From Undibacterium pigrum (GTDB lineage: Bacteria; Pseudomonadota; Gammaproteobacteria; Burkholderiales; Burkholderiaceae_D): DNA of 64,000 nucleotides. Positions within the stretch are counted from its first letter, which is position 1, and the number at the start of each line of letters is the position of its first letter. The translations under genes were made by a program, and so were the position numbers. This document shows positions 50,097 through 64,000 of this stretch, one piece after another. The stretch covers positions 1,364,001 to 1,428,000 of the forward strand of contig NZ_QJKB01000001.1 of the NCBI RefSeq assembly GCF_003201815.1, read 5' to 3'. The notes beneath the pieces were generated by a model, which saw only the letters and a list, made by a program, of their open reading frames with translations, ran no database searches and was not told where the DNA came from.

Positions 50097-51389
50097 TTAT
50101 ACACTGATTGCTGAAACCGGAAACTGTACGCAGAACTTACTGCCTACATCCGGCGTAGATTCAATCAGTAAATTCGCCTTGTGCCTCAGCAGCACATGTT
50201 TGACGATCGCCAGGCCCAGGCCTGTTCCCTGGGTCTCGCGCGAACGGCTTTTATCGACGCGGTAAAACCGTTCGGTCAGGCGCGAGATATGCTCAGCACT
50301 GATGCCTATGCCATCGTCCTGTACCGCAAATTTAGGGCCATTCGCAGTATCTATCCAGCATATCCTGATATTGCCGTTCTCTGGCGTATAGCGGATCGCA
50401 TTCGTGACCAGATTGGTCAGTGCACTGCGGATTTCATCATTACTGCCGCGTATGTCGGGACCTGTGCATTCCAGCGTAATTTTGTGCTTGCCGGCAGACA
50501 GGGCATGCGCCTCCTGTAATATCTGCTCCAACAAACCGAGCATGCTGATACGCTCTGGCCGAGGTGGGTAATCAACCGACTCCAGCCTGGTCAGGGTCAG
50601 CATGTCTTCTACCAGGCGCTGCATACGCTCACCCTGCTCTGTCATCAGTTTCAGATGCATATTACGGGTATGGCTATCGAGGTCGTCCTGCATGGAAGCG
50701 ATTTCCAGGAAACCATTGATGACCGTCAATGGAGTACGCAATTCATGTGAGGCGTTGGCGATAAAGTCGCGTCGCATCATGTCTATGCGTTCTGATTCAG
50801 TCACATCATGAGTCACCAGAATCTGGCGGCGGTTTTCAAACGGGATGATGTGGGCAATCAGCTTGCGGTCGCGGAAAGACAGTGTCAATGGTGTTTCGTA
50901 GCGACCGAGGATAATATAATCCATGAATTCCGGGCTGCGTACCAAGTTGGTCACGCGCATGCCCTTGTCCTGCGCATGGCTCAGGCCCAGATGGCTTTCT
51001 GCTGCCGGGTTACACCATTCCAGAAATAGCACGTCATCCATGATGACGACACCATCTGGCAAAAGCGTCATGGCCTGGCGAAAACGTGCCAGCCACTCTG
51101 CCAGTTCAGCCTGGTTTTTTTCATCATCACGACGCAATTTATAAAGGCGTGAAAAAATATCTGTCCAGGCGCCCCAGCCATCAGGCAGGCGTGAACTATT
51201 GGGATTATCCAGCCAGTCAGCCAGGCGCTGCAAATAAAATAGCTGGACGCAAAACAGGGTCACCATACCGATCAGGCCTAACACCAAACCTGTTACCGGG
51301 CCCCATATATACATAGCAGATGCGGCTCCCATGAGAACCAGGACGATACGTACAAATGCAGAAATCCAGAAAATAAGGCGTGGAGACAT
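50097..51389 (-). CDS. phoR: phosphate regulon sensor histidine kinase PhoR
   Basis: This 430-residue sensor kinase phosphorylates PhoB under phosphate limitation. Two membrane helices (about 8-50) are followed by a charged linker, a PAS domain (FRQAMTLLPDGVVIMDDVLFLEWCN) and the HisKA motif FIANASHELRTPLTVINGFLE. The HATPase domain includes TNLVTNAIRYTPENG, VQDDGIGISAEHISRLTERFYRVD and SRETQGTGLGLAIVKH. Length matches E. coli PhoR (431). It is the last gene of the pst-pho run, 170 bp after phoB, with two hairpins in that gap. Confidence 0.97.
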   Translation of the reverse strand: MSPRLIFWISAFVRIVLVLMGAASAMYIWGPVTGLVLGLIGMVTLFCVQLFYLQRLADWLDNPNSSRLPDGWGAWTDIFSRLYKLRRDDEKNQAELAEWLARFRQAMTLLPDGVVIMDDVLFLEWCNPAAESHLGLSHAQDKGMRVTNLVRSPEFMDYIILGRYETPLTLSFRDRKLIAHIIPFENRRQILVTHDVTESERIDMMRRDFIANASHELRTPLTVINGFLEIASMQDDLDSHTRNMHLKLMTEQGERMQRLVEDMLTLTRLESVDYPPRPERISMLGLLEQILQEAHALSAGKHKITLECTGPDIRGSNDEIRSALTNLVTNAIRYTPENGNIRICWIDTANGPKFAVQDDGIGISAEHISRLTERFYRVDKSRSRETQGTGLGLAIVKHVLLRHKANLLIESTPDVGSKFCVQFPVSAISV

Positions 51390-51485
51390 AATGGGTCCTG
51401 AGGGTCCTCAGTAATTGCTTGAAATGTAATGCACAATTGCAATGATAAAGGTTTTGCTGATATCAGTGAGCAATGTTTGCAGTCA

Positions 51486-51536
51486 ATTCCCAAACAGGGA
51501 ATGCACTGCCACACTGCATACAGGCTATGCAGTGTG
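51486..51536 (-). other. Two hairpins in the phoB-phoR gap
   Basis: One is ATTCCC / GGGAAT (51486-51501). The other is a perfect 11-bp repeat CACACTGCATA / TATGCAGTGTG at 51510-51536. Neither has a T tract, so they look more like mRNA-processing or stabilising structures than terminators. They lie on the minus-strand transcript between phoB and phoR. Confidence 0.55.
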
Positions 51537-51559
51537 CTATAAACAGCCCGGGTGCCAGT

Positions 51560-52249
51560 TTATTTTTCAGACAGCATGTAGCCAACGCTACGCACAGTCT
51601 TGATCAGCGACTCGGCATTCTTCAAGACCTTGCGAAGGCGCAGTACATGGACGTCTACCGTACGCTCTTCGATGACGACATGGTCGCCCCAGACTTTGTC
51701 GAGTAACTGGCTGCGTGAAAATACGCGCTCAGGATGTGCCATGAAGAACTTCAACAGTTTATATTCGGCGTGGCCGATATCAACCTTGTTGTCGTCTATC
51801 TTAACGGTACAACTGACCGGATCGAGCACCACCGTGCCTGCTGTCAGAGCAGTCTGCGCGTGCTCTGGGCTCTTGCGGCGCAACAGTGCCTTGATCCTGG
51901 CAGTCAGTTCACGTGGAGAGAAAGGCTTGGTGACATAATCATCAGCGCCATGATCCAGGCCAGCGATCTTGTCTTCTTCCATGCTTTTTGCAGTCAGCAT
52001 GATGACGGGGATTTCGTTAAACTGACGGTCTGAGCGTATCTTGGACAAAAGACGCAAACCACTCTGATCCGGCAACATCCAGTCCAGCAAAATCAATTGC
52101 GGGGTGCGACGCTGCAAATACTCCCAGGCTTCAGCCGTCGTGTTGACGGCAAAAGTATTCCAGCCTGCTGCACGCAGGGAAAAACTGACCAGTTCTACGA
52201 TTGCCGGTTCATCTTCTACGATGAGTATTGTTGTGTCTGTAGCCATCAT
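51560..52249 (-). CDS. phoB: phosphate regulon response regulator PhoB
   Basis: This 229-residue OmpR-family regulator activates Pho promoters. The receiver domain shows ILIVEDEPAIVELV with the acidic pair, LILLDWMLPDQSG with the phosphoacceptor Asp, and VTKPFSPREL with the switch Lys. The C-terminal winged helix contains EYKLLKFFMAHPERVFSRSQLL and ERTVDVHVLRLRK. Length matches E. coli PhoB (229). It is separated from phoU by 6 bp. The first of two adjacent ATGs is used. Confidence 0.98.
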   Translation of the reverse strand: MMATDTTILIVEDEPAIVELVSFSLRAAGWNTFAVNTTAEAWEYLQRRTPQLILLDWMLPDQSGLRLLSKIRSDRQFNEIPVIMLTAKSMEEDKIAGLDHGADDYVTKPFSPRELTARIKALLRRKSPEHAQTALTAGTVVLDPVSCTVKIDDNKVDIGHAEYKLLKFFMAHPERVFSRSQLLDKVWGDHVVIEERTVDVHVLRLRKVLKNAESLIKTVRSVGYMLSEK

Positions 52250-52255
52250 TAATAA

Positions 52256-52966
52256 TTAATTCTGTTGTTCCTGCTTGCTTGCTACATAGTCTGAATGACG
52301 GATGTCCTTGCCTTCAACGATATAAATCGTATGTTCGGCAATGTTCTTGGCATGGTCACCAATACGTTCTATCGCCTTGGCAACCCACAATGCATCAAGA
52401 GAAGATGATATCGTACTTGGATCTTCCATCATGAAAGTAATCAGATTACGCATGATGGAGCGGAAATCATTGTCGATCAGCGCATCCTGGGCAATCAATT
52501 GCACAGCCTTGTCACCATCGAGGCGGGCAAAAGCATCGAGAGACTGGTGCAACATGTCTGCCACACTGCTGGCCAGTACGCGCACGGTCTCATAGCCGCT
52601 AAACATGGGTACGCCACGCTTGGTAGTCGCAGCATCCCTTGAGATACGCGCAATTTTAGTCGATTCATCGCCTATGCGCTCAAGATCCGTGATGACCTTG
52701 CCAGTCGCCATGACAGTACGCAAGTCATTTGCTGCTGGCTGGCGTTTGACGATGAGGTGGCTGCACATGTCATCCAGCGCCACTTCGAGGCGATTGACTT
52801 CGAGGTCAGACTGGATCACTGCTTCTGCCTGAACTGCATTACCGGTACGGAAGCAGGACATAGCATCGTGAAAATGGCTTTCCACCAAGCCGCCCATCAA
52901 CAAGACCTTGGAGCGTATTGTCTCCAGGTCCATATCATATTGTTTTGAAGAGTGTTCGCCTGTCAC
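52256..52966 (-). CDS. phoU: phosphate signalling protein PhoU
   Basis: This 236-residue protein couples the Pst transporter to PhoR and keeps the regulon off when phosphate is plentiful. Two three-helix PhoU repeats are present, with metal-binding motifs DLERIGDESTKIARI and ERIGDHAKNIAEHTIY. Start: the GTG at 52966 is chosen because AGGAGA precedes it and the product begins VTGEHSSKQYDMDLETIRSKV, typical for betaproteobacterial PhoU; the open frame extends further upstream without support. A strong hairpin lies between it and pstB. Confidence 0.96.
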   Translation of the reverse strand: MTGEHSSKQYDMDLETIRSKVLLMGGLVESHFHDAMSCFRTGNAVQAEAVIQSDLEVNRLEVALDDMCSHLIVKRQPAANDLRTVMATGKVITDLERIGDESTKIARISRDAATTKRGVPMFSGYETVRVLASSVADMLHQSLDAFARLDGDKAVQLIAQDALIDNDFRSIMRNLITFMMEDPSTISSSLDALWVAKAIERIGDHAKNIAEHTIYIVEGKDIRHSDYVASKQEQQN

Positions 52967-53054
52967 AGGTTTCTCCTGAATGCGCAATTGCAAAATATAA
53001 ATGTAAACGTCGCTGTTTTATGTAACCTGTTCAGGCTACATATATGCAGCATCG

Positions 53055-53080
53055 CTTATCCATGCCTTGACATGGATAAG
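53055..53080 (-). other. Strong intercistronic hairpin between pstB and phoU
   Basis: A perfect 10-bp inverted repeat CTTATCCATG / CATGGATAAG with a 6-nt loop and no T tract. It could protect the upstream pst mRNA or reduce read-through into phoU-phoB-phoR. Function is inference. Confidence 0.6.
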
Positions 53081-53100
53081 CATGCGCGGTGCGTCGTCTG

Positions 53101-53880
53101 TTAGCCGAAACGGCCAGTAATATAGTCTTGAGTTTCTTTCTTCACAGGGTTCATGAAGATATGATCAGTCTCACCAAATTCGACCAGCTCACCCAGGTAC
53201 ATATAGGCAGTGTAGTCAGAGCAACGCGCTGCCTGCTGCATATTATGGGTAACGATGGCGATGGTGTATTCCTCTTTCAACTCATTGATCAGTTCTTCGA
53301 TCTTGACTGTAGAGATAGGATCCAGTGCTGAAGTTGGCTCATCCAGCAGCAAGACTTCAGGCTTCACGGCTACGCCACGGGCGATACACAGACGCTGCTG
53401 CTGACCACCAGAGAGACTCAAACCGCTCTTGTTGAGTTTGTCTTTGACTTCTGTCCAGATCGCGGCTTTTTTCAAGGCCCACTCAACGCGCTCATCCATC
53501 TCGCCCTTGGACAGGTTTTCATACAAACGCACGCCAAACGCGATATTGTCATACACCGACATAGGGAAAGGTGTTGGCTTCTGGAACACCATGCCTACGC
53601 GGGCACGCAACAGGTTGATGTCCTGATCTGCATCCAGGATATTCTTGCCGTTATAAATAATGCTGCCCTCTGCGCGCTGGCCTGGATACAGGTCATACAT
53701 GCGGTTCAGGGTACGCAATAAAGTCGATTTGCCGCAACCGGATGGGCCGATGAAAGCAGTGACTTTTTTGTCGTAAATATTCAGATTGATATCGCGCAGG
53801 CTGCGTGTTGCACCGTAAAAGAAATTCAGCCCGCCGATTTCGATTGCTTTTTTCTGTTGATTGTCTTGTAGAGTAGTCAT
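53101..53880 (-). CDS. pstB: phosphate ABC transporter ATP-binding protein PstB
   Basis: This 259-residue ATPase energises high-affinity phosphate import. Walker A is [17 protein letters not shown], the ABC signature [17 protein letters not shown], and Walker [14 protein letters not shown] followed by the H-loop IVTHNM. The family-specific [21 protein letters not shown] is present. Length equals that of E. coli PstB (257). It lies 11 bp after pstA. Confidence 0.98.
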
Positions 53881-53891
53881 ATCGAGGCCAA

Positions 53892-54764
53892 TTAATGCTG
53901 TGTTTTTTGGTTAAACAAAGTACGCGATAAAATATTCAAACCGAGGACGCTGAAGGTGATCAGCAATGCGCCGCCCCAGGCCAGTTCACGCCAGTTGTCG
54001 TACGGGCTCATGGCGAACTGATAAATCACCACCGGCAAATTCGCCATAGGCTGGTTCATATTGCTGCTGAAGAACTGGTTATTCAAGGCCGTGAATAGTA
54101 AAGGTGCAGTCTCACCAGAGATACGTGCTACTGCCAGCAAGATGCCAGTAACCACGCCCGCTTTAACGGCACGCAAACGTATCATCAGGGCGACCTTCCA
54201 GCGTGGTGCGCCCAGTGCAAATGCCGCTTCACGCAAGCTTGCAGGCACCAGGCCCAGCATATTGTCCGTAGTACGAACCACCACAGGAATAGCGATAAGG
54301 GAAATCGCAATACTGCCAGCCCAGCCTGAGAAGTGTTTGACGTTGGCGACATAAATCGCATACACGAACAAACCAACCACGATGGATGGGGCCGACAACA
54401 TGATGTCAGTCACAAAACGTGTTACACCACCAAACCAGCTTTTATCACCATATTCTGCCAGGTAGATACCCGCCAGAATACCGATGGGTGTAGATATCAG
54501 CGTAGCGATACCTACCATCACGAAACTGCCGAAGATGGCATTCATCAAACCGCCGCCATCACTGCCTGGTGCCGGTGTGGATTCTGTGAACATGGCAAAA
54601 GTAATTGCCGAAGAACCCTTGAGCAACAAGGTAAACAGGATCCACATCAAAAAGAACACACCCAGCGCCATGGCGATGGAGGATAAGGTAATACCTATTT
54701 TATGCATCAGCACACGCCGGCGATATACCGGGTTGCTGGCAGATTGCATCGTAGAATTTTCCAT
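53892..54764 (-). CDS. pstA: phosphate ABC transporter permease PstA
   Basis: This 290-residue permease has six predicted helices. The EAA-type loop is [21 protein letters not shown]. Other PstA-typical segments are [15 protein letters not shown] [15 protein letters not shown] and [17 protein letters not shown]. Length matches the E. coli protein (296). It starts 2 bp after the pstC stop, so the two are translationally coupled. Confidence 0.97.
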
Positions 54765-54766
54765 TA

Positions 54767-55813
54767 TTATTTTGCCCCTTCTTTACGTGACAGGCCCAGC
54801 AACATCAGCTTCGCTGCGGACAACACGATGAAAGTAATCACGAACAGTATCAAGCCCAGCAGGAACAGTGAAGATGTGTGCAATGGTGTTTCAGCTTCGG
54901 CAAATTCATTTGCCAGTGTCGAGGCAATACTGTTACCTGCGGCAAACAGAGACCAGGACAAGTGATGGGAATTACCGATCACGAAAGTAATCGCCATGGT
55001 TTCACCCAGCGCACGGCCCAGGCCCAGCATGACGCCACCGACCACACCAATTTTCGTATAAGGCAAAACGATTTTGCGTACTACTTCCCACTTGGTGCAA
55101 CCCAGGCCGTATGCAGATTCTTTCAAGACTGGCGGTACGACTTCAAACACGTCGCGCATTACAGAAGAAATGAAAGGGATGATCATGATAGCCAGAATCA
55201 CACCAGCTGCCAGGATACCCATGCCTATCATGGGGCCAGAGAACAGTACACCTATCACTGGCAACTTGCCCAGTGTAGCGGCCAAAGCTGGCTGCACATA
55301 TTGAGAAAACAGCGGAGCAAATACAAACAGGCCCCACATGCCGTAAATAATACTAGGTACACCAGCCAGCAATTCAATCGCCGTACCCAATGGGCGTTTC
55401 AGCCAGTTAGGGCAAATCTCAGTCAGGAACAAGGCAATACCAAAACTGACCGGGAAAGCAATCAGCAAAGCGATGATGGATGTTACCAGCGTACCGACGA
55501 TGGCGATCATACCGCCAAATTTGTCATTGACCGGGTCCCACTCTATGGTCCAGATAAATGGCAAACCAAATTCCTTCATGGCCGGAATGGCACGCAGGAA
55601 TAAAGAAATAATGATACCGACCAGCACTACCAGCACAAGAGCGGCGAAAGTGAAGGTCAGTTTATGAAAAAAGAAATCTTGCCAACGCTGGCGGCGCATT
55701 ACTGCTGCCATTTTCGCAGGGTCGATCTGGTCGGCCTGATGCTTTATTGCGTTTGCGGCGGGTGGGATTGCAGTTGGTGCAGTCATGTTGACGGAGGACA
55801 TTTGGCTGGTCAT
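54767..55813 (-). CDS. pstC: phosphate ABC transporter permease PstC
   Basis: This permease of about 348 residues has six core helices after a cytosolic N-terminal extension. It contains [40 protein letters not shown] and the EAA loop [33 protein letters not shown] also matches the PstC family. The start is uncertain: ATG at 55813 or 55801, or a GTG at 55828. It follows pstS after about 90 bp. Confidence 0.96.
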
Positions 55814-55901
55814 GGGTGTCTTTTCCACCGGAGGGTAATCCGGATAGTTCCGGATTACCTCGATCGTTTAGTTCAATGTATGAACAGATTCAAACTTTTT
55901 A

Positions 55902-56945
55902 TTACCAGAGTGCTTTACCGGAAGCATCTTTAACTTTGGCTTTCCAGTTGTCTTCGATCAATTTGACAACCGGGGCAGGCAAAGCAACATATTCCAGTTC
56001 AGCAGCCATTGCGCCACCGTTTTTGAATGCCCAGTCAAAGAATTTCAATACTTCTTTGCCTTTTTCAGCATCAGCCTGAGATTTGTGCATCAGGATGAAA
56101 GAAGCACCAGTAATAGGCCAGGTGATTTTGCCAGGCTGATTAGTCAGTACCAGGTACATGCCTGGTGCTTTGCTCCAGTCAGCGCCAGCAGCAGCGGACT
56201 TGAAGTTTTCATCATCTGGTTCAGCGAACTGGCCATCAGCATTTTTCAACAAGGTGTGTGTCATCTTGTTTTTCTTCACGTAGGCGTATTCAACATAGCC
56301 TATGGAATTTCTGATTTGCTTGACGCTGGAAGCCACGCCTTCATTACCCTTGCCACCTACACCAACTGGCCATTTGACAGCGGTTGCAGAACCGACTGCA
56401 GTCTTGAATTCAGGGCTGACCTTGGCCAGGTAGTCTGTCCACAGGAAAGTTGTACCGGAACCGTCAGAGCGGTGAACAACAGTGATATCTTCTGCTGGCA
56501 ATTTCACGCCAGGATTAATCGCTGCGATTTCAGGTGCATTCCATTTAGTGATTTTGCCCATGTAGATGGCAGCCAGAACATCGCCTGTCATTTTCAATTT
56601 GCCAGGAGCGATACCTTCCAGATTAACCACTGGCACTACACCACCGATAATGGCTGGGAACTGCACCAGGCCTTCGGCATCCAGCTCTTCTGCTTTCAAT
56701 GGAGCGTCAGACGCGCCGAAATCAACAGTTTTTGCCTTGATTTGTTTAACACCACCACCAGAACCGATGGATTGATAGTTCAGACCGTTGCCACTGGCTT
56801 TTTTATAAGCTTCTGCCCATTTTGCATAAATTGGATATGGGAAAGTCGCGCCAGCGCCAGTAATGTCAGCAGCTTGAGCAGCGCCAAATGTGACAGCGAC
56901 GCCAATTGCAGCGATGAGAGTTTTGACAACACGTTTGATTTGCAT
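55902..56945 (-). CDS. pstS: phosphate ABC transporter substrate-binding protein PstS
   Basis: This 347-residue periplasmic protein binds phosphate. A signal peptide ends after AAQA (about residue 26), then ITGAGATFPYPIYAKWAEAYKK and GSGGGVKQIKAKTVDFGASDAPL. VVHRSDGSGTTFLWTDYL supplies the phosphate-binding Arg-Ser-Asp and Ser-Gly-Thr. The ATG at 56945 is preceded by GAGG at 5-nt spacing. It is first in pstSCAB-phoU-phoBR. A Pho box with a 10-nt spacing to a -10 lies upstream. Confidence 0.98.
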   Translation of the reverse strand: MQIKRVVKTLIAAIGVAVTFGAAQAADITGAGATFPYPIYAKWAEAYKKASGNGLNYQSIGSGGGVKQIKAKTVDFGASDAPLKAEELDAEGLVQFPAIIGGVVPVVNLEGIAPGKLKMTGDVLAAIYMGKITKWNAPEIAAINPGVKLPAEDITVVHRSDGSGTTFLWTDYLAKVSPEFKTAVGSATAVKWPVGVGGKGNEGVASSVKQIRNSIGYVEYAYVKKNKMTHTLLKNADGQFAEPDDENFKSAAAGADWSKAPGMYLVLTNQPGKITWPITGASFILMHKSQADAEKGKEVLKFFDWAFKNGGAMAAELEYVALPAPVVKLIEDNWKAKVKDASGKALW

Positions 56946-57005
56946 GTTCACCTCAGAGTTAAATAACAGTATTCAGTACTACGAGGCGCACTGTACAAGC
57001 CAAAT

Positions 57006-57023
57006 ATGACAGGATTATGACGT
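57006..57023 (-). promoter_or_regulatory. Pho box upstream of pstS
   Basis: On the minus strand the site reads ACGTCATAATCCTGTCAT, two direct PhoB repeats (CGTCAT and CTGTCAT) 11 bp apart. Ten nt downstream is TACAGT (56990-56995), a fair -10, which is the canonical geometry of a class II PhoB promoter. Confidence 0.88.
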
Positions 57024-57064: not shown

Positions 57065-57082
57065 TTGTCATAAACTTGTCAT
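57065..57082 (+). promoter_or_regulatory. Pho box upstream of ppk
   Basis: On the plus strand TTGTCATAAACTTGTCAT contains two TTGTCAT repeats 11 bp apart. Ten nt downstream is TAGAAT (57093-57098) as -10. Transcription would start near 57105, which rules out the most upstream start codons for ppk. Confidence 0.9.
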
Positions 57083-57129
57083 TTAAGAAGTCTAGAATGC
57101 TTGCGTATATATATGACACCCTTTATGAC

Positions 57130-59322
57130 ATGCAAAAAACTATGCCAAACCAGGATGCACACTCGCCAGCCACTGAACCGGAAGAGGTGAAAGATATTTC
57201 TCACGTAGAAAACAAGACTGCAAACAAGCAGGGCAAGCAAAATGTGCCAGAATTATCACGTTCAGTGATCTTTCTGGACAGGGAAATGTCACAAATCGCT
57301 TTCAACTGGCGTGTACTGGCGCAGGCAGAAGACCGCAGCATCCCACTGCTTGAGCGCCTGAAATACTTGTGCATAGTCGGCAGCAACCTGGATGAATTCT
57401 TTGAAGTCAGGGTAGCCAGCCTGCTGGCGCAAAATACGGTGGATGGTGAACTGGTGCAGCACCCTGCCTTCCAGGCCATGCTAAAGCGCGTCAGTGACGA
57501 ATGCCACCAGTTAGCAAAAAGGCAGTATGAATTACTGAATCAGGAAATCCTGCCGCAGTTATCGCAAAAAGGCATACACCTGCTGCGCCACTCCGAGCGC
57601 AATGAAGCACAGCGTGCCTGGGTCAAGTCTTATTTCGAACGCGAAGTCAGGCCATTGTTGACACCAATTGGTCTCGACCCGGCCCACCCTTTCCCTCAGG
57701 TCGTCAACAAGAGTTTGAATTTCATTGTTTCGCTGGCAGGCAAGGATGCTTTTGGCCGTGGCACTGGCATCGCCATTGTCAAGGCACCACGCGTTTTACC
57801 GCGCATCATCCGTCTGCCCGACGAATTATCGAACGATGGCATGGCCTTTTGTCTGCTGTCCTCAGTCATCCACTCGCATATTGAAGATTTGTTCAATGGT
57901 CGCGAAGTCATCAACTATTCACAGTTCCGCGTCACCCGTGACAGCGACTTGTGGGTAGATGAAGAAGAAGTCAAGAATCTGCGCCAGGCCTTACAGGGTG
58001 AATTGCAAACCCGCCAGTTTGGTGCTGCGGTACGTCTGGAAGTAGCAAAAAACTGTCCCGAAGACTTATCCCGCTTCCTGCTGGAACAGTTCTGCCTGGA
58101 CAGCGACCGCCTGTACCCGGTTGATGGCCCAGTGAATATGGTCAGGCTGGGCGAGCTGGTTGACCATGTCAAACAACCTAACCTGCGCTTCCCACCCTTC
58201 TCTGCCAAGGCAGTTGGCAAGTATGCACACGCAGACATTTTCACTTTACTGCGCAAACAAGATATCTTGCTGCACCACCCCTTCCAGCCTTTCCAAACTG
58301 TCATTGACTTTATACGCTCAGCTTCGCAAGACCCTAGCGTAGTCGCCATCAAACAAACCATCTACCGTACTGGCATGAATTCGGATTTGATGGAGTCGCT
58401 GATTACCGCAGCCAGACTGGGCAAGGAAGTCACCGTCATCGTTGAACTGATGGCGCGCTTTGATGAAGAGGCCAATATCAACTGGGCAGACAAACTGCAA
58501 CGCGCCGGCGCACAAGTTGTGTATGGTGTGGTTGGCCTGAAGACTCATGCCAAACTGGCCCTGGTGATACGCCGTGAAGAAGGCGGCACCTTGCGCCACT
58601 ATGCCCACCTTGGCACAGGCAATTACCATCCATCTACTACACGCTTTTATACCGATTTTGGTTTACTGACAGCCCACCCTGGTGTGGCAGCAGAAGTCAA
58701 CGAAGTCTTTATCCATCTGACTGGCCTGACCAAACCCAAGAAACTCGATTATCTGTGGCTGGCACCATTTGCCCTGCAACCGCAAATCATCAAAGCCATA
58801 CGTAATGAAGCGCGCATCGCACGTGAAGGTCGCCCTGCCCGCATCATTGCCAAGATGAATGCACTGCTGGATGAATCTGTTATCCGCGCTCTGTATGCTG
58901 CATCGGCAGATGGCGTCAAGATTGACCTCATCATCCGTGGTGCCTGTGCATTGCGCCCTGGCGTGCCTGGTTTGTCCGAGAATATCAAGGTGCGCTCCAT
59001 CATAGGTCGCTTCCTGGAACATAGTCGCATCTATTACTTCCGCAATGACCTGGCACATGATGTCTATCTCGCAAGTGCTGACTGGATGAACCGCAACCTG
59101 TTCCGCCGTATTGAAGTGGCTTTCCCGGTGCTGGAAAAATCATTGAAAAAACGTGTCATTTCTGAAGGCCTGGAACCCTATTTGAAAGACAATGTGAATG
59201 CCTGGACGCTGGATTCAGATGGCCGTTACGAGCGCAAGAAAGCCAGGGCCAAGCAAGTACGCTTCTGCGCCCAGCAACATTTAATGCAGACACTGGGTTC
59301 ATTAGCTGATACGGAAAATTAA
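57130..59322 (+). CDS. ppk1: polyphosphate kinase 1
   Basis: This enzyme of about 730 residues polymerises ATP gamma-phosphate into polyphosphate. The N-terminal domain has FLDREMSQIAFNWRVLAQAED and VGSNLDEFFEVRVASLL. The phospholipase-D-like catalytic domains show QDPSVVAIKQTIYRTG, GLKTHAKLALVIRRE with the autophosphorylated His, and YAHLGTGNYHPSTTRFYTDFG. Start: the Pho promoter's predicted transcription start (about 57105) excludes the in-frame starts at 57076 and 57097, leaving ATG 57130 or 57142; neither has a good ribosome-binding site. An N-terminal extension of about 55 residues precedes the conserved domain. sixA follows 2 bp later. Confidence 0.96.
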   Translation: MQKTMPNQDAHSPATEPEEVKDISHVENKTANKQGKQNVPELSRSVIFLDREMSQIAFNWRVLAQAEDRSIPLLERLKYLCIVGSNLDEFFEVRVASLLAQNTVDGELVQHPAFQAMLKRVSDECHQLAKRQYELLNQEILPQLSQKGIHLLRHSERNEAQRAWVKSYFEREVRPLLTPIGLDPAHPFPQVVNKSLNFIVSLAGKDAFGRGTGIAIVKAPRVLPRIIRLPDELSNDGMAFCLLSSVIHSHIEDLFNGREVINYSQFRVTRDSDLWVDEEEVKNLRQALQGELQTRQFGAAVRLEVAKNCPEDLSRFLLEQFCLDSDRLYPVDGPVNMVRLGELVDHVKQPNLRFPPFSAKAVGKYAHADIFTLLRKQDILLHHPFQPFQTVIDFIRSASQDPSVVAIKQTIYRTGMNSDLMESLITAARLGKEVTVIVELMARFDEEANINWADKLQRAGAQVVYGVVGLKTHAKLALVIRREEGGTLRHYAHLGTGNYHPSTTRFYTDFGLLTAHPGVAAEVNEVFIHLTGLTKPKKLDYLWLAPFALQPQIIKAIRNEARIAREGRPARIIAKMNALLDESVIRALYAASADGVKIDLIIRGACALRPGVPGLSENIKVRSIIGRFLEHSRIYYFRNDLAHDVYLASADWMNRNLFRRIEVAFPVLEKSLKKRVISEGLEPYLKDNVNAWTLDSDGRYERKKARAKQVRFCAQQHLMQTLGSLADTEN

Positions 59323-59324
59323 TA

Positions 59325-59804
59325 ATGGATCTTATTCTCTGGCGTCACGCAGAAGCAGAACCGGCAACGGCTGAGCTGACTGATGAATTCAGAAAACTGA
59401 CAGGCAAGGGAAACAAGCAGGCCAGCAAAATCGCTTTCTGGCTGGACAGTACGCTGCCTGAAACATGCAGGATACTGGCCAGCCCCACCATACGTACCAG
59501 GGACACGGCTGAGGCCTTGATCGCCTGTGGCAGGAAGTACAAAATCATGCCAGAACTGGGGCCGGCAGCTACGGTCAACGATGTTCTGACTGCCGCCAAC
59601 TGGCCGAATAGTCGCGAACCTGTGCTCATCATCGGCCACCAACCCTATCTGGGTCAGGTCGCCGCTGAATTGCTGGGCCATCCCTTGCAAGAGTACAGCG
59701 TACGCAAGGGAAATGTCTGGTGGATCACGCAAAAGCAGCGGGAAAATGAAATCGTACAAACCTATCTGAAGGCCATCATGTCGCCCGATCTGGTGGTGAA
59801 ATAA
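59325..59804 (+). CDS. sixA: SixA-type phosphohistidine phosphatase
   Basis: This 159-residue histidine-phosphatase-superfamily protein begins MDLILWRHAEAEPAT with the catalytic RHA/G motif. It contains ILASPTIRTRDTAEAL with the second Arg and VLIIGHQPYLGQVAAEL with the second His. SixA removes phosphate from His in phosphotransfer proteins. It starts 2 bp after the ppk stop and is cotranscribed with it, so it should be part of the Pho response here. Its partner protein is unknown. Confidence 0.9.
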   Translation: MDLILWRHAEAEPATAELTDEFRKLTGKGNKQASKIAFWLDSTLPETCRILASPTIRTRDTAEALIACGRKYKIMPELGPAATVNDVLTAANWPNSREPVLIIGHQPYLGQVAAELLGHPLQEYSVRKGNVWWITQKQRENEIVQTYLKAIMSPDLVVK

Positions 59805-59915: not shown

Positions 59916-60803
59916 ATGAAACCTACGCACATCCTTGCCGCCCTGCTCGCAGTTATTACCTGGGGCATTAATTTCGTTGTCATCAAAATCGGCTTGCAAG
60001 GCTTACCGCCTGTGCTATTCACCGCATCACGCTTTATATTTTCTGCCCTGCCCCTGATATTTTTTGTACCTCTTCCAAAAACATCCTGGAAGTGGGTAGT
60101 TGCCTATGGCATGTTCCAGTTCGCCTTTCAGTTCACGCTTTTGTTTTGCGGTATCAAACTGGGCTTTCCTGCAGGCCTGGCGTCCCTGGTCATGCAATTA
60201 CAGGCCTTTATCACCATGGGGCTGGCGGTTGTCATCATGGGAGAAAAGCCACAATTCGTGCAGGTGCTGGGTGCCCTGATTGCCTTGTCTGGCATGGCCC
60301 TGGTGGCCATGCATCTGGAAGCACAGGCAACCATCATAGGATTCTTGCTGGTGGTTGCTGGCGCAGTGTGCTGGAGTATCGCCAATATTGTCACCAAGAA
60401 GATAGGTGTGGTTAATCCTCTGTCCATGGTGGTATGGGGTTCGGCCATTGCCAGTCCGCCTTTGCTGCTGGCGTCGTACATGATGGAAGGCATGGATGCC
60501 TGGCAGGCAGCTTATGCGCAACTGAACTGGACTTCCATCGGAGCGATCGCTTACCAGTCCTATCCGAATACCATCGTCGGTTTTGGCATCTGGTCATGGC
60601 TGATGCGTAAATACCCTGCTGCCACCATAGCGCCGTTCACCTTGCTGGTGCCAGTAGTTGGTATGGTCACTGCGTCTATTGTGTTGAACGAGACTTTATT
60701 CTGGTGGAAAATCTGCGCTGGTCTGCTGGTACTCGGCGGTTTGGCCTGCAACCAGTTTGGCCTACGAATCTGGTCATGGTTCAAACCAGCTGCAACCACC
60801 TGA
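59916..60803 (+). CDS. EamA/DMT-family transporter
   Basis: This 295-residue membrane protein has ten predicted helices and two EamA repeats (HILAALLAVITWGINFVVIK and GFLLVVAGAVCWSIANIVTKK). The sequence VITWGINFVVIKIGLQGLPP is typical of the YdcZ/EamA exporter group related to O-acetylserine/cysteine exporter EamA. The substrate is unknown. It lies 111 bp after sixA on the same strand and converges on the plcP-like gene. Confidence 0.92.
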   Translation: MKPTHILAALLAVITWGINFVVIKIGLQGLPPVLFTASRFIFSALPLIFFVPLPKTSWKWVVAYGMFQFAFQFTLLFCGIKLGFPAGLASLVMQLQAFITMGLAVVIMGEKPQFVQVLGALIALSGMALVAMHLEAQATIIGFLLVVAGAVCWSIANIVTKKIGVVNPLSMVVWGSAIASPPLLLASYMMEGMDAWQAAYAQLNWTSIGAIAYQSYPNTIVGFGIWSWLMRKYPAATIAPFTLLVPVVGMVTASIVLNETLFWWKICAGLLVLGGLACNQFGLRIWSWFKPAATT

Positions 60804-60819
60804 GCACAATCAAGCAAAA

Positions 60820-61686
60820 TCAGCCAGCGACTGTTTCCAGCTCAGGTTCTTCTACATAGGTATCTGTCACGGCATCTGCCACATGTTCAGGGTGGCAGAT
60901 ATCATGCCAGGTCACCAGCCTGAGTTCACCCCTGGCGTCTTCCACCAGGGCTGACAGGCTCTCAACCCAGTCGCCATCATTGCAATACAGGATACCGCCT
61001 ATGTCGCGTATCTCTGGCTTGTGGATATGACCGCAGATGATGCCATCGAGGCCTTTGCGACGGGCTTCGTCTGCCAGTGCATCTTCAAACTGCGTGATAT
61101 AGCTGACCGCGTTCTTGACCTTTTGCTTCAGGTATTGAGACAGCGACCAGTAAGGCATGCCAGCGCGGGCGCGCCAGTTATTGAAAATCTGGTTGAATTT
61201 CAAAATGACCGTGTACAGGCTGTCGCCTACATAAGCCAGCCATTTGGCGCAGGCGATGACGCCATCAAACCTGTCACCATGCAAGACCAGCATGCGCTTG
61301 CCTGCCGCAGTGGTATGCACCAGCTCATCCCTGATCTTGATACCACCGAAATCGAGGTCGATAAACTGGCGTACCGACTCGTCATGGTTGCCAGGCACGA
61401 AGATGACATTCGTGCCTTTCTTGGCTTTTTTCAGGACGGTCTGCACCACATTATTATGAGTTTGATCCCAGTACCAGCGACGCTTGAGTTGCCAGCCATC
61501 GATGATGTCACCAACCAGGTAAAGGGTATCTGAGTCGGTAGCACGCAAGAACTCCAGCAACTTGGCCGCCTGGCAGCCGCTCGTTCCCAGATGCAAATCT
61601 GAAATCCAGATAGTGCGGAAACGCTGGGTTTCTTTCTTACCGGTTTTATACAATTTGCTATTCAGGAACTGATCGGCTGGTTTCAT
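60820..61686 (-). CDS. PlcP-type metallophosphoesterase (candidate phosphate-starvation phospholipase C)
   Basis: This 288-residue calcineurin-like phosphoesterase has all metal motifs: SDLHLG (Asp30, His32), GDIIDGW (Asp60), PGNHDE (Asn100, His101), HGDRFDG and CGHIHKP. It falls in the COG2908 group often annotated as LpxH-like. The longer length, YWSLSQYLKQKVKNAVSYI and LYCNDGDWVESLSALVED fit the PlcP type, which in Sinorhizobium degrades membrane phospholipids under phosphate starvation. An LpxH role in lipid A synthesis is the alternative. It lies 3 bp after an OlsB-like gene with Pho half-sites upstream, which favours PlcP. Confidence 0.82.
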   Translation of the reverse strand: MKPADQFLNSKLYKTGKKETQRFRTIWISDLHLGTSGCQAAKLLEFLRATDSDTLYLVGDIIDGWQLKRRWYWDQTHNNVVQTVLKKAKKGTNVIFVPGNHDESVRQFIDLDFGGIKIRDELVHTTAAGKRMLVLHGDRFDGVIACAKWLAYVGDSLYTVILKFNQIFNNWRARAGMPYWSLSQYLKQKVKNAVSYITQFEDALADEARRKGLDGIICGHIHKPEIRDIGGILYCNDGDWVESLSALVEDARGELRLVTWHDICHPEHVADAVTDTYVEEPELETVAG

Positions 61687-61689
61687 CTT

Positions 61690-62454
61690 TTATTGCTCCC
61701 CTGTGCCGTAATGGCGTGCGTAACGGTTATCCAGATTCGCCAATGGCAACATGACGAACAAATCAGCACTATGGAAATCAGGGTCCCAGGCGGGATCACC
61801 ACAGACCCAGGCACCAGCACGCAAATAACCTTTCAGCAGCGGCGGGATACGTGCCTCGGTAGTGCTGCTATCGATTTCATCAAGCGGGAAAGGCGTGTGC
61901 GGCGTAACGCGATATTCGAGTGGAGAAAAATCTGCTGCAGATAAACCACGGTAGATCGCGGCGGCATTCTGGCCACCGTCAGTCAGACTGATACTCGCGC
62001 AACCGATGAGGTGCGAGCAACGCTCACGGCGCATATAGGCAGCCAGGCCAGCCCACAGCAACATGATGACGGCACCGCTGCGGTAGTCAGGGTGTATGCA
62101 GGCGCGGCCTGCTTCTGCCACGCTATTGCGTATGTGTTGCAGGCGGGACAGGTCGAATTCTGTTTCAGAGTAATAACGACCCAGTTGGCGGGCCGCATTT
62201 GGTCCCAGTATGCGGTAGGTGCCTACCACTTTCAGGGTCTTGGAGTCACGTACGATCAAATGATCGCAATGTTCGTCAAATTCATCTTTATCCAGGCCAT
62301 CGGGATTGGATAAGGCAGACAGGCCCATGCTTTCTATAAAGACCTTATAGCGCAGGCGCTGCACTTCTTTGACTTCTTTTGCCGTGGTAGCAAGGCTCAG
62401 ATTTAGCTTGGAAAAACTGGGATTAGCATCGGCGGGTATCGTGAGTAATCGCAT
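61690..62454 (-). CDS. OlsB-type ornithine-lipid N-acyltransferase (GNAT/hemolysin-like)
   Basis: This 254-residue protein matches the Acetyltransf_5/OlsB family, which N-acylates ornithine with 3-hydroxy fatty acids to start ornithine lipid synthesis. Motifs are EVKEVQRLRYKVFIESMG, DKDEFDEHCDHLIVRDSKT, VVGTYRILGP, EAGRACIHPDYRSGAVIMLL and LIGCASISL. OlsA, the second acyltransferase, is not adjacent. The first gene of a two-gene operon, it has three PhoB-type repeats upstream. Related enzymes act in other lipid or siderophore acylations, so the exact substrate is inferred. Confidence 0.85.
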   Translation of the reverse strand: MRLLTIPADANPSFSKLNLSLATTAKEVKEVQRLRYKVFIESMGLSALSNPDGLDKDEFDEHCDHLIVRDSKTLKVVGTYRILGPNAARQLGRYYSETEFDLSRLQHIRNSVAEAGRACIHPDYRSGAVIMLLWAGLAAYMRRERCSHLIGCASISLTDGGQNAAAIYRGLSAADFSPLEYRVTPHTPFPLDEIDSSTTEARIPPLLKGYLRAGAWVCGDPAWDPDFHSADLFVMLPLANLDNRYARHYGTGEQ

Positions 62455-62521
62455 TCATCGTCCTTGTCATGTTGTTCGTTGATCCGACGAACGAAGAATA
62501 ATCAAGGATTACTTCAGCAAG

Positions 62522-62550
62522 ATGACAGTTGAATGTCAGTTTTATGACAA
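62522..62550 (-). promoter_or_regulatory. Three phased Pho half-sites upstream of the olsB-like operon
   Basis: Reading the minus strand, TTGTCAT (62544-62550), CTGACAT (62533-62539) and CTGTCAT (62522-62528) recur at exactly 11-bp steps with 4-nt AT-rich spacers. That is the periodicity of PhoB binding sites. The -10 expected about 10 nt downstream (TAATCC, 62506-62511) is weak. Confidence 0.85.
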
Positions 62551-62551
62551 G

Positions 62552-62594
62552 TCAAAAAAACAACAATCCCTGGCTGACGAATGTCAGGCAGGGA
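62552..62594 (-). terminator. Terminator of the H1-like gene
   Basis: A 12-bp inverted repeat with one mismatch (TCCCTGCCTGAC / GTCAGCCAGGGA on the minus strand) is followed by a T-rich run. It lies about 110 bp after the stop of the gene at 62705. Confidence 0.75.
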
Positions 62595-62704
62595 TAGACA
62601 GGTGAAATCTATAGATTTGGGTGCACATCTCCCCAGAACGGAGAATATGACCCAGACCCTTAGCAATACAGCTTAATAAAGCCAAACACAGCTATAAGTC
62701 TGTA

Positions 62705-63199
62705 TTATTTTTCTTTCTTTGGCCTGCCAGCCTTCAATGGAGCCAGGCCTGCGATCAATTTTTTCAGGGTGGGAACATCTGTTTTGCCCAGTAAAGCCAC
62801 GCCTATGCGCAGCAACTGGCTTTTCTTGACTTCCACTCCAGCCTTAAGGCAGGCTTTTTTGACTGCGCCGAGGGCAGCATACTCACTTTCCGGCATGGTG
62901 AAGCTGTCGCGCACCAATTTAGGCTTTTTCACTTTTTCCACTACAGGCTCAGCTACCGGCTTCACCTCTACAGCTTTAGCGACAGACTTGCTACGGACTG
63001 GTGCGTTTGCTACCACTTTTGTTGCCACTTTCGCGGCTACTTTTACTGGTGGTTTCAATGGTGTTTTTTCATCAGTAACAGGCTTGCTGACGACTTTTTT
63101 CTTGACTGCTGCGACTGGGCTCTTCTTAACAGCCACGATTTTTTTCTCTGTACTTGCTGCCACTACCGGACTCAATTTCTTCGTTGTTGCGGTTGCCAT
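62705..63199 (-). CDS. Lys/Ala/Val-rich histone H1-like protein with C-terminal conserved domain
   Basis: This 164-residue basic protein has two parts. The first 95 residues are a low-complexity Lys-Ala-Val-Pro tail (KKSPVAAVKKKVVSKPV, KVAAKVATKVVANAP) like bacterial histone-H1-type tails. The last 65 are a compact conserved region, KLVRDSFTMPESEYAALGAVKKAC then VKKSQLLRIGVALLGKTD, ending KAGRPKKEK, which looks like a ribbon-helix-helix-type DNA-binding segment. A nucleoid-associated role is inferred. The ATG at 63199 has GGAGG at 5-nt spacing, preferred over an ATG at 63223. Confidence 0.8.
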   Translation of the reverse strand: MATATTKKLSPVVAASTEKKIVAVKKSPVAAVKKKVVSKPVTDEKTPLKPPVKVAAKVATKVVANAPVRSKSVAKAVEVKPVAEPVVEKVKKPKLVRDSFTMPESEYAALGAVKKACLKAGVEVKKSQLLRIGVALLGKTDVPTLKKLIAGLAPLKAGRPKKEK

Positions 63200-63393
63200 T
63201 CCAGCCTCCAGGTTAGAAAACATGTAAACAATATAAACAATTTATTGTTGTTATGCAAGGAGCAAGCATAGCCAGAAGAAATGACAGGGACATTACGAAA
63301 AAAACGCTCGCAAGAAAAAATATCGCCGCTCATGAGATAATCCGCGCCGTTTCACCGGGCAGCATTTTCCCACCCTATTGTTTCGTTTTTATT

Positions 63394-64000
63394 ATGAATA
63401 CACGTAATTCTTTATTATTTACCCTGGTTTTAGCCCTCTCTCCTGTAGTAAGTCATGCCCAGATACAGGGTTCAGGCTCTTCCGCAGCAGCCCCCCTTTA
63501 CCAAAAATGGGCTGATGCCTATAGCAAAACCGGTGGTGCAAATATTGTCTATCAAGCCAATGGCTCTTCTGCAGGCATCAAGAAAATCAAGGAAAACACT
63601 GTAGATTTTGGCGCCAGTGATGCCGCCATGAGCCAGGCAGAACTGAAAAAAGAAAAACTGATACAGTTCCCCTCTGCCATCTCTGGCGTGGTCCCCGTCA
63701 TCAACTTGCCCGGCATCAAAACTGCTGAACTGCGCCTCACTGGTGAAATACTGGCTGGCATTTTTTCTGGTGAAATCACTTCATGGAATGATGCCGCCAT
63801 CAGCGCACAAAACCCAGGCCTGCGCTTGCCCGCCAAAAGCATAGAAGTCATCGTGCGTCAGGACGGCTCAGGCACGACTTATAATTTTTCTGACTATCTG
63901 AGCAAGGTCAGCAAAAACTGGCAGGGGAAATTTGGCAGAAATTTCACCATACCCTGGAACGCCCGTCTTATACAAGTCAAGGGGAGCAGTAATATTGCCA
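63394..64000 (+). CDS. second PstS-like phosphate-binding protein (truncated by window end)
   Basis: The frame opens at ATG 63394 and runs to the window edge, so at least 202 residues are seen. A signal peptide ends after SHA (about residue 22). The mature part IQGSGSSAAAPLYQKWADAY, ENTVDFGASDAAMSQ, LTGEILAGIFSGEITSWND and VRQDGSGTTYNFSDYL match the PstS family, including the phosphate-binding SGT loop. It is a paralogue of the pstS at 55902-56945, clearly divergent in sequence. No good Pho box was found directly upstream. What follows it lies outside the window. Confidence 0.93.
   Translation, partial: MNTRNSLLFTLVLALSPVVSHAQIQGSGSSAAAPLYQKWADAYSKTGGANIVYQANGSSAGIKKIKENTVDFGASDAAMSQAELKKEKLIQFPSAISGVVPVINLPGIKTAELRLTGEILAGIFSGEITSWNDAAISAQNPGLRLPAKSIEVIVRQDGSGTTYNFSDYLSKVSKNWQGKFGRNFTIPWNARLIQVKGSSNIA

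What the first reader, a model, noticed from the sequence alone, without database searches (positions are those of the whole stretch)
61690..62550. Pho half-sites control an olsB-plcP-like operon: a phosphorus-free membrane lipid switch
Upstream of the OlsB-type gene three PhoB half-sites recur every 11 bp (seen directly). The operon encodes an ornithine-lipid acyltransferase and a PlcP-type phospholipase-like enzyme, 3 bp apart. In Sinorhizobium, PlcP removes phospholipid headgroups and ornithine lipids replace them during phosphate starvation, but I know of no description of the two in one Pho-driven operon. The pairing would couple degradation to replacement in a single transcript. This is the strongest candidate for an undescribed arrangement here.
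Basis: partly seen in the sequence, partly recalled or inferred. Interest (0 to 1): 0.85.

Follow-up and report, generated by a model that had tools for sequence, protein, structure and literature searches.

The report
Phosphate-starvation operon swapping membrane lipids
A bacterium that is probably an Undibacterium keeps a gene that dismantles phospholipids and a gene for a phosphorus-free replacement lipid in one operon behind a phosphate-starvation switch, and many of its relatives share this arrangement.

Summary
On the minus strand, olsB-like (62454..61690) and plcP-like (61686..60820) genes lie 3 bp apart behind three PhoB half-sites at 11-bp steps (62522-62550), far beyond chance. The metallophosphoesterase is not LpxH: the genome has a separate LpxH, and the window protein is 48-50% identical to Sinorhizobium meliloti and Pseudomonas aeruginosa PlcP but 22-25% to LpxH. 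The operon is not a quirk of one genome: in its family, 48 of 76 sampled genomes with plcP have olsB directly upstream (12 genera; named examples Undibacterium, Collimonas, Herbaspirillum, Glaciimonas), and 22 of 34 such promoters examined carry a Pho box (0.83 expected). Some relatives add agt after plcP. Best reading: a PhoB-driven phospholipid-to-ornithine-lipid remodelling operon, a new arrangement of a known pathway. Caveats: no expression or lipid data; the OlsB-like protein is below curated OlsB cut-offs; the tree does not settle where LpxH attaches; PlcP's product diacylglycerol is not an ornithine-lipid precursor, so the coupling is in expression, not in metabolism. The genome has no full-length Agt but has a BtaA-like gene with its own Pho box, followed by a GNAT gene where Sinorhizobium and Rhizobium have a methyltransferase: the most novel lead.

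The parts
62522..62550 (-). Pho box: three half-sites every 11 bp in front of olsB
   Evidence: 2 of 21 mismatches, 0 of 100 simulated windows with 3 or fewer; conserved in relatives
61690..62454 (-). olsB-like gene (ornithine N-acyltransferase type, PF13444)
   Evidence: PF13444 126.2 bits; NCBIfam OlsB 159.9 and 158.4 bits, below cut-offs 320 and 350
60820..61686 (-). plcP gene (metallophosphoesterase, phospholipase C type)
   Evidence: PF00149; 47.8-50.2% identity to S. meliloti and P. aeruginosa PlcP; separate LpxH in the genome
57054..57082 (+). second triple Pho-like box, over the start region of ppk (context)
   Evidence: 4 of 21 mismatches
57006..57023 (-). double Pho-like box before pstS (context)
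   Evidence: 2 of 14 mismatches
50097..56951 (-). pstS-pstC-pstA-pstB-phoU-phoB-phoR: phosphate uptake and the PhoR-PhoB regulator (context)
   Evidence: phoR, phoB, phoU, pstB, pstA and pstS each over a curated NCBIfam cut-off; the pstC ORF 54767-55828 was listed but not scanned
57076..59322 (+). ppk1, polyphosphate kinase (context)
   Evidence: TIGR03705 918.3 bits, cut-off 465.85
59325..59804 (+). sixA, phosphohistidine phosphatase (context)
   Evidence: TIGR00249 77.2 bits, cut-off 74.5

Best explanation
A two-gene, PhoB-activated membrane-remodelling operon. When phosphate runs short, PhoB (encoded about 10 kb away in the window) binds the triple box and starts one transcript. The OlsB-like enzyme joins a hydroxyacyl chain to ornithine, and an OlsA-type acyltransferase encoded elsewhere completes the phosphorus-free ornithine lipid. 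PlcP cuts head groups off phospholipids, which frees phosphorus for the cell and leaves diacylglycerol. Sharing one transcript ties removal and replacement together in time and amount. Shown here: gene order, spacing, box, conservation of pair and box, a separate LpxH, kinship to PlcP. Inferred: PhoB binding, induction, co-transcription, both enzyme activities, the lipid change. In this genome the diacylglycerol probably does not go to Agt glycolipids and may go to a lipid made by a Pho-boxed BtaA-like enzyme.
For: Triple Pho box, 2 of 21 mismatches, not matched in 100 simulated windows. Regulator genes phoB and phoR in the window. PlcP: 47.8% and 50.2% identity to S. meliloti and P. aeruginosa PlcP against 22.6-25.0% to LpxH; own LpxH elsewhere; GNHD motif in 61 of 62 PlcP rows against GNRDF in 8 of 8 LpxH rows; close homologues stand beside agt in 52 of 53 named loci of the Burkholderia-type group. 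OlsB models are the best NCBIfam matches, and this is the only match in the genome at E<=1e-20. Pair conserved: olsB directly upstream of plcP in 48 of 76 family genomes with plcP, 12 genera, and in 25 of the 27 closest named loci. Box conserved: 22 of 34 pair promoters against 0.83 expected; 15 of 24 named promoters with a triple at 5 or fewer of 21 mismatches against 0.01 expected (the two sets overlap). PlcP, OlsA and OlsB are PhoBR-dependent in P. putida BIRD-1 (PMC5082522 passages); plcP, olsA and olsB belong to the S. meliloti Pho regulon (PMC10315480 passages).
Against: OlsB-like protein below both curated OlsB cut-offs; the likeliest OlsA also below its cut-off (116.8 against 300) and without a Pho box. 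All seven genomes of genus g6 examined keep the pair but lack a box with 3 or fewer mismatches. The consensus scan is imperfect: two plcP genes meant as positive controls score only 4 of 14, and 2 of 22 control promoters reach 3. No sigma-70-type promoter match on the minus strand of 60700-62750. AU tests do not reject LpxH attaching at the window's branch (p 0.275, 0.5, 0.502; 0.652). No expression or lipid data.
Confidence: 0.75

Rival explanations
1. The metallophosphoesterase is LpxH (lipid A synthesis) and its neighbour an unrelated acyltransferase.
For: LpxH is the best-scoring solved-structure relative (2e-7) and the name databases give such genes. AU tests leave the attachment point of LpxH open.
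Against: A separate gene of the genome passes the LpxH cut-off, this one does not; 22.6-25.0% identity to LpxH against 48-50% to PlcP; GNHD instead of GNRDF; Pho box and olsB partner.
Confidence: 0.02
2. The operon is a Pho-controlled lipid operon, but the acyltransferase uses another amino acid or the phosphoesterase another lipid substrate, so that the product is not ornithine lipid or the substrate not phosphatidylethanolamine or related phospholipids.
For: Acyltransferase below the OlsB cut-offs; 32.0% identity to the S. meliloti GNAT protein matched, whose identity as OlsB I did not establish.
Against: OlsB models lead by far: 159.9 and 158.4 bits, then OlsF 61.8, an exosortase-type acyltransferase 46.7, and glycine-lipid GlsB 16.1.
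Confidence: 0.15
3. The box serves olsB alone or is unused, and the two genes are neighbours without being co-regulated by phosphate.
For: In genus g6 the pair stays together without a detectable box; 5 of 12 examined olsB genes without plcP beside them also have a box (0.4 expected).
Against: 3-bp gap, no promoter-like match on the minus strand in the region, pair and box together in most genera examined.
Confidence: 0.06

Closest known systems
plcP-agt lipid renovation operon (P. aeruginosa PA3219-PA3218, SAR11 HTCC7211, Methylosinus trichosporium OB3b; PMC8528852, PMC4796936, PMC9239053)
   Same: PlcP of the same family in a Pho-linked operon with a gene for a phosphorus-free lipid
   Different: The partner here is olsB-like, upstream of plcP; no full-length Agt was found in this genome. 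Some relatives have both: olsB-plcP-agt (6 of 27 loci)
olsBA operon (P. aeruginosa; PMC9804370)
   Same: olsB in an operon upregulated at low phosphate
   Different: The partner there is olsA, not plcP; here the likeliest olsA lies on another contig without a Pho box
Sinorhizobium meliloti Pho regulon: plcP, btaAB, olsA, olsB, sqdB (PMC10315480)
   Same: Same enzymes under PhoB
   Different: There plcP and the matched OlsB-type gene lie far apart in the record (2,072 kb and 436 kb)
plcP-agt-dagK cluster of Burkholderia, Paraburkholderia, Cupriavidus and kin
   Same: Nearest plcP group outside the window's close kin (62-68% identity); a double box in 33 of 47 examined against 0.37 expected
   Different: olsB directly upstream in only 1 of 53 loci

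Membership tests
PlcP phospholipase | calcineurin-like metallophosphoesterase domain | tested here: met
   PF00149 49.1 bits, cut-off 21.5
PlcP phospholipase | close kinship to characterised PlcP and distance from LpxH by identity | tested here: met
   47.8% (S. meliloti) and 50.2% (P. aeruginosa) against 22.6-25.0% for seven LpxH
PlcP phospholipase | placement in a tree apart from LpxH | tested here: inconclusive
   LpxH and the window's family group each 100/100, but AU tests do not settle where LpxH attaches
PlcP phospholipase | hydrolyses phospholipids to diacylglycerol | not testable with these tools
   needs an assay
OlsB ornithine N-acyltransferase | Acetyltransf_5 domain | tested here: met
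   PF13444 126.2 bits, cut-off 22.4
OlsB ornithine N-acyltransferase | curated NCBIfam OlsB cut-offs (NF052555, NF052554) | tested here: not met
   159.9 against 320; 158.4 against 350. Filed as OlsB-like only
OlsB ornithine N-acyltransferase | an OlsA partner in the genome | tested here: inconclusive
   L052:1294-2028 is the best of six PF01553 proteins, 116.8 bits against a cut-off of 300
Pho regulon promoter | PhoB half-sites repeated every 11 bp upstream of the gene | tested here: met
   conserved in relatives
Pho regulon promoter | induction by low phosphate through PhoB | not testable with these tools
   needs expression data
LpxH | TIGR01854 cut-off, and no other gene filling the role | tested here: not met
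   48.8 against 190.35; another gene at 262.1
plcP-agt operon | agt beside plcP | tested here: not met
   the downstream neighbour 59916-60803 is an EamA transporter on the other strand; no full-length Agt in the genome

The most novel reading that the evidence does not exclude
In this lineage PlcP has parted from its usual partner Agt, and the diacylglycerol it makes is taken up by a second Pho-boxed operon (L182) in which a BtaA-like enzyme is followed not by a BtaB-type methyltransferase but by a GNAT acyltransferase. The cell would then make an N-acylated rather than trimethylated diacylglyceryl-homoserine lipid, beside ornithine lipid, as its phosphorus-free membrane: a lipid class I know no description of (recalled; one search, aimed at it and found none).
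Probability: 0.12. Interest if true: 0.75.

Novelty: new variant of a known kind. Interest (0 to 1): 0.5.

Why it matters
It gives a natural module in which removal of phospholipid and supply of a phosphorus-free lipid are on one transcript, kept by many genera of Burkholderiales, and so a simple genetic handle for asking whether the two must be balanced. It also corrects the LpxH-type name that database records give to this gene, and makes plcP beside olsB usable as a sign of membrane remodelling in this group.

Tried and rejected
LpxH identity: rejected. A proof by tree was tried three times. The first tree held two wrongly extracted LpxH rows (L160, L166), which I dropped afterwards; the later ones separate the groups, but the AU tests (p 0.652, 0.275, 0.5, 0.502) do not settle where LpxH attaches, so I do not rest the case on trees. 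That the pair is special to this genome: rejected. That the arrangement needs the box: rejected, genus g6 lacks it. Box scan of other layouts: mismatches of 14 were 5 (G290), 4 (G252), 3 (G031), 3 (G225), 5 (G640), 3 (G660), 4 (G653), 3 (L231), 2 (Mitsuaria), 4 (Sphingomonas), so these layouts give mixed support. Promoter and terminator scan: chance-level numbers; one terminator-like hit (60833-60821, minus strand) overlaps the end of plcP.

Literature: full-text searches for the operon (the last returned nothing) in an open library that lacks most subscription journals showed no olsB-plcP operon in their listings. I saw passages of PMC9239053, PMC5082522, PMC9804370, PMC8528852, PMC3972451, PMC7779409 and PMC10315480, and passages plus section 13 of PMC4796936; none of what I saw describes it. 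The supplementary table of plcP contexts of PMC4796936 was not looked at, and Shropshire et al. 2021 on Burkholderia cenocepacia was seen only as a reference.

Rows left out of counts: one search uses all 76 and 108 genomes, many of them draft assemblies, so some of the 14 'far or other contig' cases may be artefacts (G641's plcP is cut by a contig end). One search examined 34 of the 48 pair genomes, those with a locus in session. One search used 24 of the 25 named pairs (L201 left out) and 47 of the 53 other loci (L218, L223, L230, L231, L247, L261 left out). Identities to LpxH are for 7 of 10 LpxH loci (two had no hit, one was too short). The match lists were cut by the tool, so I give no order-wide adjacency count.

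Full report
WHAT IS THERE. On the minus strand near the end of the window lie two genes, 61690-62454 (254 aa) and 60820-61686 (288 aa), with 3 bp between the stop of the first and the start of the second. Upstream of the first, at 62522-62550, three half-sites recur at exactly 11 bp: TTGTCAT, CTGACAT, CTGTCAT. Two of 21 positions differ from three copies of CTGTCAT; no triple with 3 or fewer mismatches occurred in 100 Markov simulations of the window. The places found in the window at the printed thresholds stand before olsB, ppk and pstS. A genome-wide search with a degenerate pattern, loosened with this site in view, gave 12 hits in 6.4 Mb: this one with 0 mismatches, the ppk one with 1, ten with 2; the pattern read backwards gave 2. 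The window also holds phoR, phoB, phoU, pstB, pstA and pstS, each over at least one curated NCBIfam cut-off.

WHICH ORGANISM. The best named match to the PlcP protein is Undibacterium sp. TS12 (90% identity), whose locus has the same order of olsB, plcP, eamA, sixA, ppk and pstS as the window. The window is most likely from an Undibacterium.

THE SECOND GENE IS PLCP, NOT LPXH. It scores 48.8 bits on the LpxH model (cut-off 190.35), while another gene of the genome scores 262.1. A P. aeruginosa protein followed directly by a glycosyltransferase (L155), as published for PA3219-PA3218 (PMC8528852 passages), scores 44.5. Identity is 50.2% to that protein and 47.8% to the S. meliloti gene near an AHL synthase and a LuxR regulator (L154; recalled as the neighbourhood of SMc00171), against 22.6-25.0% to seven LpxH proteins, the genome's own among them. 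The motif reads GNHD in 61 of 62 PlcP-type rows and GNRDF in 8 of 8 LpxH rows. A tree of 41 rows gives 100/100 for LpxH and for the window's family group, but AU tests do not reject LpxH attaching at or near the window's branch (p 0.275, 0.5, 0.502; 0.652), so the tree alone is not proof.

THE FIRST GENE IS OLSB-LIKE. PF13444 at 126.2 bits. The two NCBIfam OlsB models are its best matches (159.9 and 158.4 bits) but below their cut-offs of 320 and 350; then come OlsF 61.8, an exosortase-type acyltransferase 46.7 and GlsB 16.1. It is the only match in the genome at E<=1e-20. Of six PF01553 acyltransferases, L052:1294-2028 is the likeliest OlsA (116.8 bits, cut-off 300); no Pho box was seen before it.

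CONSERVATION OF THE OPERON. Among 145 genomes of the family, plcP was found in 76 and olsB in 108. Of the 76, 48 have olsB directly upstream on the same strand within 150 bp (12 genera); 9 have plcP, then 2-3 kb, then olsB on the same strand; 3 have them near each other on opposite strands; 14 have both but far apart or on different contigs; 2 have no olsB match. Among 80 named loci, the 27 closest have olsB directly upstream in 25 and agt directly downstream in 6 (Collimonas, three Herbaspirillum, Oxalicibacterium, one MAG). The other 53, mostly Burkholderia, Paraburkholderia, Cupriavidus, Caballeronia and Pandoraea, have agt in 52, dagK in 48, and olsB directly upstream in one (L231). In the layout plcP-...-olsB of G640 the genes between are a GT4 glycosyltransferase, a DAGK_prokar and a His_Phos protein. 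In the order-wide sample of 300 genomes plcP was in 149 and olsB in 215.

CONSERVATION OF THE BOX. Of 34 pair promoters examined, 22 have a double half-site with 3 or fewer of 14 mismatches (0.83 expected from simulations), 21 of them on the gene's strand, mostly 54-84 bp before the start. All seven genomes of genus g6 examined lack one. Of 12 promoters of olsB without plcP beside it, 5 have one (0.4 expected). Of 24 named pair promoters, 15 have a triple with 5 or fewer of 21 mismatches (0.01 expected) and 17 a double (0.29 expected); this set overlaps with the first. Of 47 promoters of the plcP-agt type, 33 have a double (0.37 expected). Controls: the P. aeruginosa and S. meliloti plcP genes, taken as positive controls, score only 4 of 14, and 2 of 22 control promoters of the own genome reach 3. 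The scan misses sites and gives some false ones, but the difference between the sets is large.

HOW IT PROBABLY WORKS. PhoB starts one transcript; the OlsB-like enzyme and an OlsA build ornithine lipid from ornithine and acyl chains; PlcP strips phospholipids to diacylglycerol. Diacylglycerol is used for betaine lipid and glycolipids, not for ornithine lipid (PMC3972451 passages; PMC10315480 passages), so the operon couples the two in expression only. PlcP, OlsA and OlsB were absent from a phoBR mutant of P. putida BIRD-1 at low phosphate (PMC5082522 passages); the locus tags there (0974, 0975, 1390) are apart.

WHERE THE DIACYLGLYCEROL GOES. No full-length Agt was found (best match 3e-9 over residues 226-324 of 349). 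A BtaA-like gene is present (DUF3419, 335.7 bits); in 8 of 10 plasmid-collection records matched, all Rhizobiaceae, identity is 42-44%, in the other two about 25%. A double box CTGTCACCAAGCTGTCAC ends 51 bp before it (0 of 200 simulations as good). In S. meliloti and R. leguminosarum the next gene is a SAM-dependent methyltransferase, as expected for btaB; here, 8 bp on, it is a 375-aa GNAT protein (PF13480). DUF3419 and GNAT genes also adjoin in Shinella oryzae and Rhizobium rhododendri records, with the 25% relatives. No btaB-like gene was found in 16 kb around it, in the window, or in the other own-genome pieces searched; the rest of the genome was not searched for it.

NOVELTY. plcP with agt or btaAB, and olsBA, are known operons. 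Seven full-text searches of an open library showed no olsB-plcP operon. The six marine plcP layouts of PMC4796936 (section 13) do not name one. I rate it a new variant of a known kind.

Noticed in passing
L182:1348-3767 (own genome, contig C2, about 132.1-134.5 kb): BtaA-like gene (DUF3419) with a double Pho box 51 bp before its start, followed 8 bp later by a GNAT gene (PF13480) where S. meliloti and R. leguminosarum have a SAM methyltransferase. Possible operon for an undescribed phosphorus-free lipid.
   Followed up: partly
L134:3014-6665 (G640); also L139 (G225) and L142 (G290): Other groupings of the same functions: plcP-GT4-dagK-His_Phos-olsB in L134; plcP, a 342-aa ORF not scanned, dagK, olsB in L139; olsB-plcP-GT4 in L142.
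   Followed up: partly
window 57076-59804; L156:3914-6980; L231: plcP recurs near polyphosphate kinase: ppk and sixA near it in the window, plcP-ppk1 in Mitsuaria sp. 7, olsB-plcP-ppk-sixA in L231.
   Followed up: no
window 63253-63999: A second phosphate-binding-protein-like gene (PF12849) runs off the window end; several Undibacterium loci have a 35-44% PstS relative at the matching place upstream of olsB.
   Followed up: no
window 62705-63223: A 172-aa ORF rich in lysine, alanine and valine upstream of olsB on the same strand, without Pfam or NCBIfam match.
   Followed up: no
plasmid records; CP090106.1: PlcP genes are annotated as UDP-2,3-diacylglucosamine diphosphatase in public records; a 3.7-Mb S. 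meliloti record titled plasmid pSymB looks by size and genes (mutS, lspA) more like the chromosome.
   Followed up: no
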